Shown here piece after piece: positions 18,320 through 24,300 of a stretch of 64,000 bases of DNA. The notes below the pieces were generated by a model. It did no database searches, had not been told where the DNA came from, and saw nothing but the letters and a program-made list of their open reading frames with translations. This stretch comes from Halichondria panicea (taxonomy: Eukaryota > Porifera > Demospongiae > Suberitida > Halichondriidae). The position numbers were made by a program, and so were the translations under genes. The number at the start of each line of letters is the position of its first letter. The first letter of the stretch is position 1. The stretch lies in the NCBI RefSeq assembly GCF_963675165.1, contig NC_087381.1, positions 620,001 to 684,000 of the forward strand, read 5' to 3'.

Positions 18320-21300
18320 TTATCCCGGATATGGTGGAGGGGCTTCTCCGCCAGAAAAATACAGTGCAGGGGGTGGTTTTGCAGTGGCTGGGGGTTGCTG
18401 AGGATAACTTGGGGCTGGGGGTTGCTGAGGGTAGGACGTGTGGTACGAGGGGGCGGCATATTGTCCAGTCGGGTAGGCAGCTGCTGGTTGAGGCCCATGA
18501 ACATTTGGAGGGGGAGGTTGATTAGAGTTTGAAGATCTTTGATTCATGGAGTAGGCTGTATTTTGTGTATTTGTGACGGTCGTTGTAGCTGTCGACGTAG
18601 TGTTAGAGTTTAGATTCCTGGGTGGGGGGCTATTCAGGCGACGCCTTCTTACGATACTACAGAACAAGACGATAATCACAAACACGAAAATGATGAAGAT
18701 GACAGGAACAGACACTCCAATACCGATAGATACGCTGGACGCCGATGCTGCATAAAAATAAAGTATGTCAGTGCATGTCGATGTGGTCTGTAATAATTAT
18801 AGTCATAATTATTGTATGTATAATTATGATGGTCAGCCATGGCTACCCCGTGCATTACGCATGCATCATAATACATGATTACCACGTGGCGGTTGCTGTG
18901 TAGTGGTTACGGCCATTGCGCTTCGTGTTAATAATTTAAGTTGCATGTATGCATGTGTGGGGCCACGCCCACCTACGAGTTGATGGCTGAAATGGTGGAA
19001 AAACAAGCTTCGCTTCATGGCTGGAACTTGATCTGAGAGAGCTCTAACGGAATAGATGGAGCATTCATATAGCTAAAGCTATACGTACATTGTACATACA
19101 TAGATTGTAGTATGGCCACGGACTAACTCAGGTATATTATAGCCTCCTTCACCGGCCTTTGAAAGAAGGCCTGCTATCGACTGCTTGCGCATGCGCAAGA
19201 TTATTGGATTTTTTTCCCGTAAATATTTCTATAATACTGGAACATCAGAGGAAATATCCTAAAAGTCATACACAGAGCTATATAGCTAGCTAGCTAGAGA
19301 CAGAGCTGTGTAGGTTTGTTGTACTGCTATTTTCCTCTGATAGAATCAGTAGCAGTAGTATAGTAGACTTTCACCAAAGTTAGTGTTAAAAATGGGCGTG
19401 GCCTGTCCATATAGGCTCTTATCAGCCGTCACTCCTTTCAGACGATCGTCATCCACACTGTTGCAGGCTGTGAGTCTTTTGTTAACATAGCAGGCTAAGG
19501 GTAGCTATCAGAGAATGCTATCCGATGGGCTAGAAACCTTCAATCGAACTTTCTATCTACTTCCTTCAATCCACTTCCTTTCGTTGTGATGTCATAGTTT
19601 TACTGAGCATAAACGATGTTATCCAAAGCCCCCAGATACCGGGGGGGGGGGGATATTAGCGCATGCGCAAGCAGTCGATACCAGGCCCACTTCCCTAGTG
19701 GGAAGTGCGGCCTGGGATCGAGGCTAGGTATAGGACTGGGACCTTCAATTATTGCTGAATCAGCTAAAACGCAGCCACGCCCACGATTTTTAATATGTTT
19801 TGTGTGTAAAAATTTTGTGCAGCTACTGATCTTTTTTAGTTCTAAAAACGGTGTTCTAAACCTTCCTTTTAGCTCTTAATTCTTAGTGTAGTAGGTAGTT
19901 CAAAGGCTTAAGCAGACATATCCGCTGGGAGAGAGCATCATGTTCTATTTAGAGTAAGTTATTAGCCTATAAAAATAAAAATGTCACTTATTGTCAGCTG
20001 TAAGGCCACTCCAAGTGATACTCTGGTTTCTGGTCCACCGCCCGCATCAGATTTTATTCTTGGATTTCTATCTCATTATTGGATTTCTATCTCATTATTT
20101 CTACTACGCATGCGCAGAATGGTCCATGTGGTACAAAATAGTGTGATAATGATATTCATTTGCAAAATAATGAGGTGAAATTGATAATGACATAATGAGA
20201 AAAGCCGCCCGCCCGCATGCAATTAGAAAAACTTCAGGACCAGAAACCAGAGTGTCACTTGGAGTGGCCTAAGACTAAGTTTTGTGCAAAATCTCACCTT
20301 TGGCCAAAGAAGTGGCTCTCTCCCAGCAGATATGTCTGAACTACCTACTACACTAAGAATTAAGAGCTAAAAGGAAGGTTTAGAACACCGTTTTTAGAAC
20401 TAAAAAAGATCAGTAGCTGCACAAAATTTTTACACACAAAACATATTAAAAATCGTGGGCGTGGCTGCGTTTTAGCTGATTCAGCAATAATTGAAGGTCC
20501 CAGTCCTTAATACCGTATAGCGCGAAATTTTCGAGGCACTTATATTTCGTGGATTGGCCTCTAAAAGCATTTCGTTGCACAATGTTCGTGAAATGACTGC
20601 TTACCGGAAGCCACACCTTTAATGTTATGTTTAACAGGAAACACTTCTAGGCCACGCCTTAAATTTTCGCTATGCACTATGTAAGTGTTTGCAGGCAGCT
20701 GTACAGTACAGTACGTCTCATCTATCATCTCTAGCATGTCTAGCTCTAGCTAGCTAGCTCTAGCGCCGGTGCAGTATGACTACTACATCTATCTTTGAAA
20801 TGGAATCAATGATTCGAGGATACCATGTCTACCAAGCTGTATGGCATCCACATATTGGAGAAGAGTTATGTTGTGCTACAGAGCATGCAAATGTACGCGA
20901 TCGGTACGCTGTTGCTGTGAGGAAATCAAGCCTTACTATAGGCCACATCCCAAGGAAGATCTCTACCCTCTGCTCCCTATTTTTGCAGCGCGGTGGTACT
21001 ATCACATGCCAGGTAACAAGCTTGAGACGCTACTCAAGCGATTTAGTACAAGGTGGATTGGAGATACCCTGTGTCTTGAAGTTTGAAGGTGATATCAAAC
21101 TTGTAAACAAAGTTATAAAATTGGCCAAAATTCACAATAAATCCGACTGTACAGCGGTAGACAGTAATGCTGAGGAACTGCCAACAATTAAAGAAGAGAG
21201 TGATGATACTGACGAAGAACTGCCAGTAAACAAAAAAGTATGCACAGTGAATGGAGTAAACATTGCTGACCTTACCGAAATCATCAGCGAAGGAGGACAA

Positions 21301-24300
21301 CTAACAGATTTACACATGGAGTATGCACAAAAGTTACTCAAGAAACAATTCCCACACATCAATGGCCTGCAGCCAACAGTGTGTCTTACGAGAACAACAT
21401 GTAACGACGGTCCAAAGAAGACACTATCGTCAAACCAACTTCAAATTGTCCACACCCGTGGAAATCATTGGATAGTGGTGTCAGCCATTGACTGTGAAGA
21501 AGGAGTTGTGAATGTATATGATTCTCTTTATGAAACAATTGTTGGTGCTACAAGGGAAATAATTTTAAATATCTTTCAAGCATCGCTCATTAATATGGTG
21601 GAATCCCAAAAGCAAGAAGGTGTAGTTGACTGTGGACTTTTTGCGATAGCTAACGCTACCAGCCTTGCCTATGGGACTAATCCAGGATCCTATGTACAGT
21701 CATTAATGCGGCAGCACTTAGTGAACTGTCTGGAGTCAGGTGTTTTGCCGATGTTCCCCTCTGAATAACTATTACCATTGTGCATGGCATTATTGAATAT
21801 TATTTTTATTGGAATGCAGTTTGTGTTGCAGAGAATCATCATAATAATAATAGAATAATAATTAAGAATGCACACTAGTCAGAAAGACAGGCCACTATAC
21901 CAGCACCTCTAAAGCCATTGATCATGATTTCAGGTTTGGATATCAGATAGTCATACAGTTCCATTAACCATTTAGCACCAATTGGCTTAACAATAGACAG
22001 TTTGAGATCAACTGGTACTACTGGCAGGTCGTCAGCGAGTTTCTCACATATTTTCTTTGCATACCAATCCTGAAATTTTCCCCGCATGAACTCTTTAGCG
22101 GCTTTATTCACGCTGACATCTAGTGGTTGTAACCTATCAGTGCAGTTAGCAGGAACAAATACTCGGTGGAGGTGGCTTTCATCGAGCTTTTTAAGTACTG
22201 GGTCTGTCATCTGCCCTTTGAATTGATCAAAAATAACAAGAGCAGGGTAGTTGGGTGGAAGTTTGAGTTCTTTTCTCTTCTTGCTGATGTAAGGAACAAG
22301 AATTTTGTCAACATAATCAAGCATTGTGCGCTCATTAGCCCAGTGATTGCAGCTGAAGGTAATGTGCCAATCACAAGGGAATTTAATGCTCGGAAGACAT
22401 CTCTGAGTTTTTCCCGTGTAGATAAGTTGGACAGGGAGGAAGTCACCAGTGAGGGAGGCACCAAATACACCTGTAATCTGCCTCTTGTCATCTACTCCTG
22501 CGATTTCAACCCTTTTTGCTCCTTCCTTCTCCATGGTCCAAGAACTAACTGGAATGTAATGGATACCAGTTTGATCCCAGTTTATTATAAGGTCGTGAGG
22601 GATTTCTTCCATTTCTACAACCGTCTTCACATCTAACAAAAACTGTTCTTTAATGGCTGCGAAATTTTCAGCACTCACTTTCGCCTTTGTAGATGCTCTT
22701 CTTTTCACAAAGCCCATTCGCTCAAGAATATGTTTGCCCCAGCTTTTTGTGAAGGTGATGTGGCCCCCATTAGAGGCTAGTTGACTTTTGTCTTTGCTTC
22801 GCACAATGCCCTCTGCACACCCAATAGCAATTGCAGTGTTCAATACAGCTCCATGTGTACGTATGGTTTTGAGGTAGGCTCTAACCTGCATCTCTGTTTC
22901 TTCTCCTAGTAAATATGGCCGGCCTCTCTTTTTTAAGGGAAGCTCATCAATTTCTGTGTCCTCCTTCCCTTCACTTCTCAATCGTTTCTTTTCTTTAAGA
23001 AAGGCATTCTTCCAATCCCTTACTGAGCTCTCCTTCAAGGGATCTGGGAGCTTTGAGGCATAGAAGCGCACAGTAGCAGTTACTCCATACTCCGCTGCCT
23101 TTCTCCCGATTTCAGCCTTCTTCTGAGCACTTATTAACATATAGGTTCCTCGCTTAGCTCCCATACTACGTGAGGTAAGCACATCATTGACTTGCTTGTT
23201 GGCTGAAGTGATTGCACGTGAGGGTATGTGTCTAGCGAGGGATCCACTGGGATGTGGGAGCTTTACTCCAGGGTAGCGTCCATCATGCTCACCATCAACT
23301 CTAGCTCTAGAGAAAAACTTTAGAATAGACATAGCTAGCTTGCTACCTGTACGTATATGCAACTGGATCCTGCGTACTTGATGACGTATTTAGCTGGTGG
23401 AGGCTGGAAAGAAGGAGATAATTCTAATTAACGAACAATTTTCGTGGAATTAATTTTCGTGTAGCATTGCTGACCCACGAAATCCGCGAAAATTAAGCCC
23501 CTCGAACATTTCGCGCTATACGGTAATACACTGAGAATACCACTTGATTATTAACATGAAGTTCAATTGCAGAACCATCCAGTGTGTTCTTGTGTGAAAG
23601 GGGGGGGTTCCATGGAACCTGTCTGGATCCGCCACTGCAGCAACTGCTATATATATACAGTGGAACCTCCATTACGACCACCTCCAAAGAGCAACCACAT
23701 GCTATATAACGGCCAAAAGCTCAGGTCCGGATTGAAACTACAATGACTTCAATGTAAAGCAACCTCTCAGGAGCAACCAGAATGTAAATGCGCGTTGGTT
23801 ATAAGGCTCTATTTGATTCCTTGATTGAACGCCGCGGTTTCAATGACTCAACTAAAAGCTATACAATTAAAAGTACAACAAAATAGCCAATAGTTATACT
23901 TAAATGACATTTTTTACACCTATTTACCTACAAGCTTTGAAAAGGCTGTAGGGACAAGCTACAGCTAGGTATTCACGATTGTGCAAAATAATGCTATCTC
24001 AGCAATAATTTTCTGCTAATTCTTGGTGTGGCTGTCCGTTCCGGGAGGTTATTTTCCATTGCTAAAGCTTGTTGGGGACTAGAAAGCTGCTCGTTATACA
24101 GAGTTGAGAGGGAAGCAGTTAGCAAAGCTCCAAGATTCATTTGCAGCAAGAAATGACTCATACTATGAGTCTGCATACATAGTTGGCAATCGAAACCTCT
24201 CACGGAAGATCACCTCTCTATAACGGCCAAAAGGCTGTTCCTCAATGGTGTCCGTTTTATGGAGGTTCCACTGTAGTTGAATGTTTTACTGCTTACTATA

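What the first reader, a model, noticed from the sequence alone, without database searches (positions are those of the whole stretch)
20513..23523. pogo-like transposon that carries a HIRAN-Ulp1 protease gene
Inside one pair of terminal repeats with TA target sites lie an intact DD35D transposase and a convergent intact gene joining a HIRAN-like domain to a Ulp1-type protease with His231, Asp249, Gln280 and Cys286. Ulp1 proteases are known from some Mutator-like and other large elements; I know of no pogo-type element with this fusion. A DNA-end-binding module plus a deSUMOylase could act on target choice, repair or host silencing.
Basis: partly seen in the sequence, partly recalled or inferred. 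Interest (0 to 1): 0.85.

Follow-up and report, generated by a model that had tools for sequence, protein, structure and literature searches.

The report
Pogo transposon with HIRAN–Ulp1 accessory gene
This is an apparently intact jumping gene whose second gene joins a DNA-end-binding type domain to a SUMO-protease type domain, and relatives of that second gene sit beside transposases elsewhere in the same genome, so it looks like a working accessory part of transposition rather than a stray passenger.

Summary
Window 20511-23525 (TA target sites included) is a pogo-type transposon. Its ends match at 39 of 48 positions, the first 18 identical. It encodes an open 485-aa DD35D transposase and a convergent open 330-aa HIRAN–Ulp1-type protein with the His/Asp/Gln/Cys set. 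The exact 17-nt end occurs 1,118 times in the genome, and 334 sites hold two such ends 180-210 nt apart. Nine of these were read: all are MITEs made of this element's two ends (87-96% identical).

The pairing is not peculiar to one copy. Of 12 loci with a well-matched transposase (≥40% over ≥100 aa), 11 keep HIRAN and/or Ulp1 sequence and 8 keep both; over all 26 transposase-matched loci it is 19. Genome-wide, 17 of 39 HIRAN loci lie within 3 kb of a pogo-type transposase match (0.13 expected), 13 of them convergent. HIRAN without Ulp1 lies inside other pogo-type elements, so HIRAN is the wider module. But 52 of 69 transposase loci show no HIRAN nearby.

Likeliest role: an accessory factor that binds cut or fork DNA ends and removes SUMO from host proteins there; VANC-like anti-silencing is the main rival. 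The papers searched showed no such element.

The parts
20511..20512 (.). left TA target site
   Evidence: sequence; TA on both sides
20513..20558 (+). left terminal inverted repeat (CCGTATAGCGCGAAATTTTCG...)
   Evidence: the 17-nt terminus including TA occurs 1,118 times in the genome
20511..20622 (+). left 112 bp shared with the nine MITEs read; four CGAAA/TTTCG motifs in the first 113 bp
20776..21768 (+). accessory gene, 330 aa, HIRAN-Ulp1-type fusion
20815..21123 (+). HIRAN region (residues 14-116; Pfam match 24-75)
21445..21723 (+). Peptidase_C48 match (residues 224-316) with H231, D249, Q280, C286
21875..23332 (-). pogo-type transposase, 485 aa, D253 D369 D405 (DD35D)
23312..23332 (-). 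N-terminal PIP-like motif MSILKFF of the transposase
   Evidence: similar start in 5 of 10 loci examined; pattern chosen after seeing three of them
23413..23525 (-). right 113 bp, of which 90-113 bp are shared with the nine MITEs read; five CGAAA/TTTCG motifs
23478..23523 (-). right terminal inverted repeat
23524..23525 (.). right TA target site
   Evidence: sequence

Best explanation
SHOWN: an apparently autonomous pogo-type cut-and-paste transposon with two convergent open genes, a DD35D transposase and a HIRAN-Ulp1-type protein, whose ends also make up a MITE family. INFERRED: the second protein is a transposition accessory factor. [quoted passage not shown] Its C48 domain removes SUMO (or a related modifier) from host proteins there, for example PCNA or repair factors. 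This favours successful excision, integration, or template-directed donor repair that gains a copy. A PIP-like motif at the transposase N-terminus would fit such fork/PCNA coupling. The anatomy is near certain (about 0.95); the confidence given is for the mechanism.
For: Gene pair and ends. Accessory sequence kept in 11 of 12 well-matched transposase loci, 19 of all 26. 17 of 39 HIRAN loci within 3 kb of a transposase match, chance 0.34% each. HIRAN and transposase distances covary across 14 elements (r 0.80, 0 of 5,000 permutations as high). Window against L017-L021: pN 0.38-0.40 (accessory) and 0.28-0.37 (transposase) with pS 0.65-0.80, so both proteins were constrained. HIRAN without Ulp1 is carried by other pogo-type elements, so the DNA-binding module is the wider one. 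The HIRAN profile finds HLTF, whose HIRAN is crucial for interaction with 3'-ssDNA at forks (PMC7214843, passages). Drosophila pogo transposase interacts with PCNA, with a PIP-box conserved in Tigger and Lemi1 (PMC5371812, passages). PIP-like N-termini in 5 of 10 loci examined and a canonical QSEITTFF near the end of the L027 transposase.
Against: No biochemical or expression data. 52 of 69 transposase loci have no HIRAN match within 3 kb (one search scored only 121 of 255 candidates, so some may be missed). Relatives vary in the protease: L017 and L019 give no C48 match at E up to 1, L019 has lost the catalytic Cys, L017 has Glu for the Gln, and a profile of the four fusion proteins finds no PDB match. 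The single-sequence fold is uninformative (mean pLDDT 38.4). HLTF end-pocket residues were not compared. The PIP-like start lacks the canonical Gln; its pattern was set after seeing three of the five; 5 of 10 loci did not show it; the same scan gave two further matches at other places; and of 12 sources scanned for the canonical box only L027 has it in a transposase (two matches in L031 lie on the other strand).
Confidence: 0.42

Rival explanations
1. Anti-silencing factor, working like VANC/KIU of Arabidopsis VANDAL elements: HIRAN brings the protein to the element's repeated terminal motifs and Ulp1 strips SUMO from silencing proteins, keeping the element expressed.
For: CGAAA/TTTCG motifs are dense in the two ends (9 in 226 bp, 39.8 per kb) against 1.43 per kb inside and 0.79 per kb in the rest of the window (motif chosen after seeing the ends). 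VANC is a TE-encoded protein that causes methylation loss over its elements, with targets often in tandem repeats (PMC5735166, abstract and section headings); KIU versions carry Ulp1 (PMC13317346, passages). SUMOylation supports TE silencing in animals (PMC9406493, passages).
Against: HIRAN is not known to me as a sequence-specific binder; the repeated motifs may simply be transposase sites. In seven other family loci, some with guessed ends, the motif count was 0-4 per 150 bp. HIRAN occurs without Ulp1 in other lineages here.
Confidence: 0.3
2. Passenger: a captured host gene fragment carried with no role in transposition.
For: Most pogo-type loci here show no HIRAN nearby (52 of 69), and transposons do capture host sequence (PMC13317346, passages).
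Against: Constrained across diverged copies, mostly convergent layout (13 of 17), HIRAN partner in several lineages with different ends.
Confidence: 0.1
3. The C48-like domain is a deubiquitinase or other clan CE enzyme, not a deSUMOylase, acting on ubiquitin signals at cut DNA or on transposase stability.
For: Best single-sequence PDB match is OtDUB (E 0.099), then a chain named ULP_PROTEASE domain-containing protein (0.17), with a Ulp1-like SUMO protease only at E 1.1 (none significant). RickCE_cat also matches weakly. Ginger1 elements carry OTU or Ulp1 alternatively (PMC2836005, passages).
Against: Peptidase_C48 is the only protease model over its cut-off; residue spacing H-18-D and Q-6-C fits Ulp1 (recalled).
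Confidence: 0.13

Closest known systems
pogo superfamily (IS630-Tc1-mariner group; Passer, Tigger, pogoR, Lemi, Mover, Fot/Fot-like; PMC7386202, passages)
   Same: DDE_1 transposase, DD35D, TA target site, inverted repeats, length within 1.2-5.2 kb
   Different: second ORF is a HIRAN-Ulp1-type protein; the paper's main text has no word beginning 'protease' and describes one or two ORFs encoding transposases. Which of the six families it belongs to was not tested.
Ginger1 DNA transposons (PMC2836005, passages)
   Same: a cut-and-paste element carrying an Ulp1 domain
   Different: Ginger1 has a Gypsy-integrase-like transposase with Ulp1/OTU as its C-terminal domain; here a DDE_1 transposase and a separate HIRAN-Ulp1 gene. 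The paper's text has no HIRAN, and its one mention of Pogo concerns the tree.
VANDAL/KIU Mutator-like elements with VANC-Ulp1 (PMC13317346 passages; PMC5735166 abstract)
   Same: accessory gene with Ulp1, separate from the transposase; possible anti-silencing analogy
   Different: Mutator-like elements of plants; I know of no HIRAN there (recalled); no pogo ends
HLTF HIRAN domain
   Same: detectable sequence relationship
   Different: HLTF is a SNF2-family protein with a RING domain (PMC7214843, passages); here a small protein carried by transposons

Membership tests
pogo superfamily | DDE_1 catalytic domain | tested here: met
   43.5 bits, cut-off 22
pogo superfamily | DDD triad with pogo spacing | tested here: met
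   D253/D369/D405, DD35D; [quoted passage not shown]
pogo superfamily | TA target site and terminal inverted repeats | tested here: met
pogo superfamily | N-terminal CENP-B_N / HTH_ABP1_N / HTH_Tnp_Tc5 / BrkDBD / HTH_psq DNA-binding domain | tested here: inconclusive
   none in the window protein; L017 sibling HTH_Tnp_Tc5 16.9 bits, below cut-off 22.2; L020 piece none
pogo superfamily | placement among named families in a tree with reference sequences | not tested
   only elements of this genome were in the tree
Peptidase_C48 (Ulp1) | profile match over cut-off | tested here: met
   23.5 bits, cut-off 20.7; L018 also 23.5; L017 and L019 not matched at E up to 1
Peptidase_C48 (Ulp1) | His-Asp-Gln-Cys catalytic residues | tested here: met
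   H231, D249, Q280, C286 in the window protein; of 4 aligned proteins His and Asp in 4, Gln in 3 (Glu in L017), Cys in 3 (lost in L019)
Peptidase_C48 (Ulp1) | SUMO cleavage | not testable with these tools
   needs enzyme assay
HIRAN | profile match over cut-off | tested here: met
   met for the gene family (25.7, 34.2, 25.5 bits in L017-L019); the window copy alone 22.1, below 24.7, though the genome scan gave 25 with its neighbours in the frame
HIRAN | binding of 3' single-stranded DNA ends | not testable with these tools
   pocket residues not compared; the primary paper was not held
Ginger1 | Gypsy-integrase-like transposase with fused Ulp1/OTU | tested here: not met
   transposase is DDE_1 and the protease is a separate gene
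VANDAL/KIU Mutator-like elements | Mutator transposase | tested here: not met
   DDE_1 was the only Pfam match of the transposase

The most novel reading that the evidence does not exclude
HIRAN is a recurrent transposon accessory module, carried by several pogo-type lineages and by at least one other element type with CAGAGGAGG ends. Together with PIP-box transposases and, in the window's family, an Ulp1 domain, it makes a replication-fork toolkit: transposition is tied to PCNA and forks, and SUMO is removed from PCNA or repair factors so that the donor gap is repaired from the sister chromatid and the copy is regained.
Probability: 0.2. Interest if true: 0.85.

Novelty: new variant of a known kind. 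Interest (0 to 1): 0.6.

Why it matters
A review says the functional relevance of PIP-boxes in pogo-type transposases remains unclear (PMC5371812, passages). A transposon that also carries a HIRAN domain, known from fork remodelling, and a SUMO-protease-type domain makes the idea of replication-coupled transposition directly testable, and would be a counterpart to the Ulp1 accessory genes of plant elements. The family includes an apparently intact gene pair, and 334 sites with two matching ends offer natural substrates.

Tried and rejected
Relatives outside this genome: none in viral contigs for either protein or in genome contigs for the fusion alignment. No eukaryote collection was offered, so spread beyond this genome is unknown; the organism was not identified. 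AlphaFold on the window protein alone gave mean pLDDT 38.4, too poor for a fold search, so none was run. PDB sequence searches: transposase best E 0.51, nothing useful; window accessory protein best E 0.099; fusion profile nothing. dN/dS of the close pair L018/L020 is 0.69 (accessory) and 0.59 (transposase), nearer neutral, as expected for decaying copies; between families synonymous sites are mostly saturated, so only constraint, not a ratio, is claimed, and only stretches that tblastn aligned were counted. Whether HIRAN loci away from transposases are host genes was looked at by fetching 20 of those 22 (16, 4): several are repeats; a host HLTF gene was not identified. Literature: ten searches, of which I saw listings (titles and abstract starts, capped: e.g. 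20 of 1,905 papers and 15 of 509; the three small HIRAN searches, listed 8 of 9, 4 of 4 and 13 of 13). Passages, or the abstract, were seen of PMC2836005, PMC13317346, PMC7325037, PMC7386202, PMC7214843, PMC5735166, PMC9406493, PMC5371812, PMC4103810. Recalled, from no call: that similar HIRAN and transposase proteins are common in cnidarian and other animal genomes; RFC1's N-terminal PIP-box; the Tigger-type end sequence; PCNA SUMOylation; 3' overhangs left by this group.
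Full report
Observation. The element spans window 20513-23523 between TA target sites. Its ends form an inverted repeat (48 nt, 85% complementary; 39 of 48 in register, first 18 identical). It holds two open convergent genes 106 bp apart: a 330-aa protein at 20776-21768 (+) and a 485-aa transposase read from the ATG at 23332 down to 21875. Pfam gives DDE_1 43.5 bits for the transposase, and Peptidase_C48 23.5 bits (over its cut-off) and HIRAN 22.1 bits (2.6 below its cut-off) for the other protein.

Are the domains real? Three sibling fusion genes in the same genome are 40-44% identical to the window protein. 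They score 25.7, 34.2 and 25.5 bits for HIRAN, all over the cut-off, and one (L018) scores 23.5 bits for C48. L017 and L019 gave no C48 match at E up to 1; L017 has Glu in place of the Gln, and L019 has lost the catalytic Cys, so not every copy is competent. A profile of 13 transposon-borne HIRANs finds HLTF structures with E about 1e-5; three of those 13 come from repeats without a DDE_1 partner. A stricter profile of 10 pogo-linked ones gives E 0.005-0.007, still the five best matches. The fusion profile itself found no PDB match, and the single-sequence fold was useless (pLDDT 38.4).

Mobility. The exact 17-nt end occurs 1,118 times in the 131-Mb genome (reversed control 0), and 334 sites hold two such ends in inverted orientation 180-210 nt apart (control 0). 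Nine of these were fetched. All nine consist of the element's left ~112 bp (88-96% identical) and right 90-113 bp (87-93%) with the middle missing. They are MITEs with this element's ends and neither gene. So this element or a close relative has been mobile.

Is the gene pair constant? One search's transposase matches fall into 26 loci. Of the 12 with a match of at least 40% over at least 100 aa (window included), 8 keep both HIRAN and Ulp1 sequence, 2 Ulp1 only, 1 HIRAN only and 1 neither (L033, a broken transposase). Over all 26, 19 have HIRAN or Ulp1 near; the other six without are matches of 47 to 154 aa and were not fetched (drawing). Inverted ends enclosing both genes were recovered for the window, L019 and L020; for L017, L018 and L021-L023 an end is damaged or was not found. 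The closest other transposase is 59% identical, so no second close full-length copy was seen.

Wider pattern. Merging searches gave 69 transposase loci and 39 HIRAN loci (lower bounds: one search scored 121 of 255 candidates). 17 of 39 HIRAN loci, the window included, lie within 3 kb of a transposase match, where a random point would do so with probability 0.0034. Thirteen of the 17 are convergent, three divergent, one tandem. On the Pfam HIRAN list alone, 8 of 20 are near a transposase. Conversely 52 of 69 transposase loci show no HIRAN near, so it is not a general pogo gene. HIRAN with a DDE_1 transposase and no detected Ulp1 lies inside recovered ends in L027 (25 of 25 nt), L035 (23 of 23 nt; HIRAN there is a Pfam match with one stop), L029 (45 nt, 89%; HIRAN 16.8 bits, under the cut-off) and L031 (29 nt, 90%; HIRAN by similarity to the window's). 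L027 and L035 ends begin TACAGTAGAACCTCG, Tigger-like as I recall. Three other fetched DDE_1 loci (L041, L042, L043) have an Ulp1-like match and no HIRAN; in the longer stretch of one (L069, over L042) Pfam finds a PHD finger but no C48 in that ORF. HIRAN and transposase distances covary over 14 elements (r 0.80, 0 of 5,000 permutations). This is partly driven by a few tight groups, some rows are short, and most tree forks are weakly supported, so it argues for joint inheritance but does not exclude swaps.

Constraint. Comparing the window with L017-L021, synonymous differences are mostly saturated (pS 0.65-0.80) while pN is 0.38-0.40 for the accessory gene and 0.28-0.37 for the transposase. 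Both proteins have therefore been kept under constraint.

Mechanism. The wider module is HIRAN. HLTF's HIRAN is crucial for interaction with 3'-ssDNA at forks (PMC7214843, passages), and cut-and-paste elements of this group leave 3' ends (recalled). The transposase begins MSILKFF. A start of the form M-x-hydrophobic-x-x-aromatic-aromatic is seen in the window, L017, L019, L020 and L022, 5 of 10 loci examined; the shuffle rate at residue 1 is 0.00125 for the window protein, but the pattern was set after seeing three of them and the scan gave two further chance-like matches. The L027 transposase ends with a canonical QSEITTFF, the only canonical box in a transposase among 12 sources scanned. Drosophila pogo transposase interacts with PCNA, and a PIP-box is conserved in Tigger and Lemi1, with function unclear (PMC5371812, passages). 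An end- or fork-binding accessory protein that removes SUMO from host factors is my preferred inference (0.42). The main rival is anti-silencing in the manner of VANC/KIU (PMC13317346, PMC5735166), helped by the dense CGAAA motifs in the ends (9 in 226 bp against 0.79 per kb in the rest of the window) and by the role of SUMO in silencing (PMC9406493).

Novelty. Ulp1 in DNA transposons is known (Ginger1, Mutator-like; PMC2836005, PMC13317346). In the listings I saw no HIRAN-bearing eukaryotic transposon and no pogo element with Ulp1; listings were capped, and subscription papers and repeat databases were not searchable. I file it as a new variant of a known kind.

Noticed in passing
L057, L059, L060, L061, L062 (and L053, L054, L063): HIRAN-bearing repeats with CAGAGGAGG ends and 8-9 bp target duplications in L057, L059 and L062, unlike pogo; only one such end was seen in L053, L054, L060 and L063. 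In L063 and L053 the HIRAN frame (21.8 and 38.0 bits) is convergent with an ORF that has no Pfam match.
   Followed up: partly
L037, L038, L040, L064, L067, L068: A repeat of about 0.95-1.2 kb with TACCGTACCGTCGCGAAAAT-type ends that carries a HIRAN-like reading frame (Pfam only 13 bits in L037) and no detected transposase; long frame in L037 and L038, shorter or broken in the others.
   Followed up: partly
L069 3558-6600: DDE_1 transposase with HTH_psq beside a tandem ORF that resembles the window's Ulp1 part (no Pfam C48) and has a PHD finger; inverted repeats of 279 nt, 97%, lie outside them.
   Followed up: partly
L027 907-3582 and L035 748-4059: Ends TACAGTAGAACCTCG... (Tigger-like, recalled) enclosing a DDE_1 transposase and a HIRAN gene, no Ulp1 detected.
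   Followed up: partly
L018 1001-1993: The HIRAN-Ulp1 frame is open (331 aa) although the transposase beside it carries many stops.
   Followed up: no
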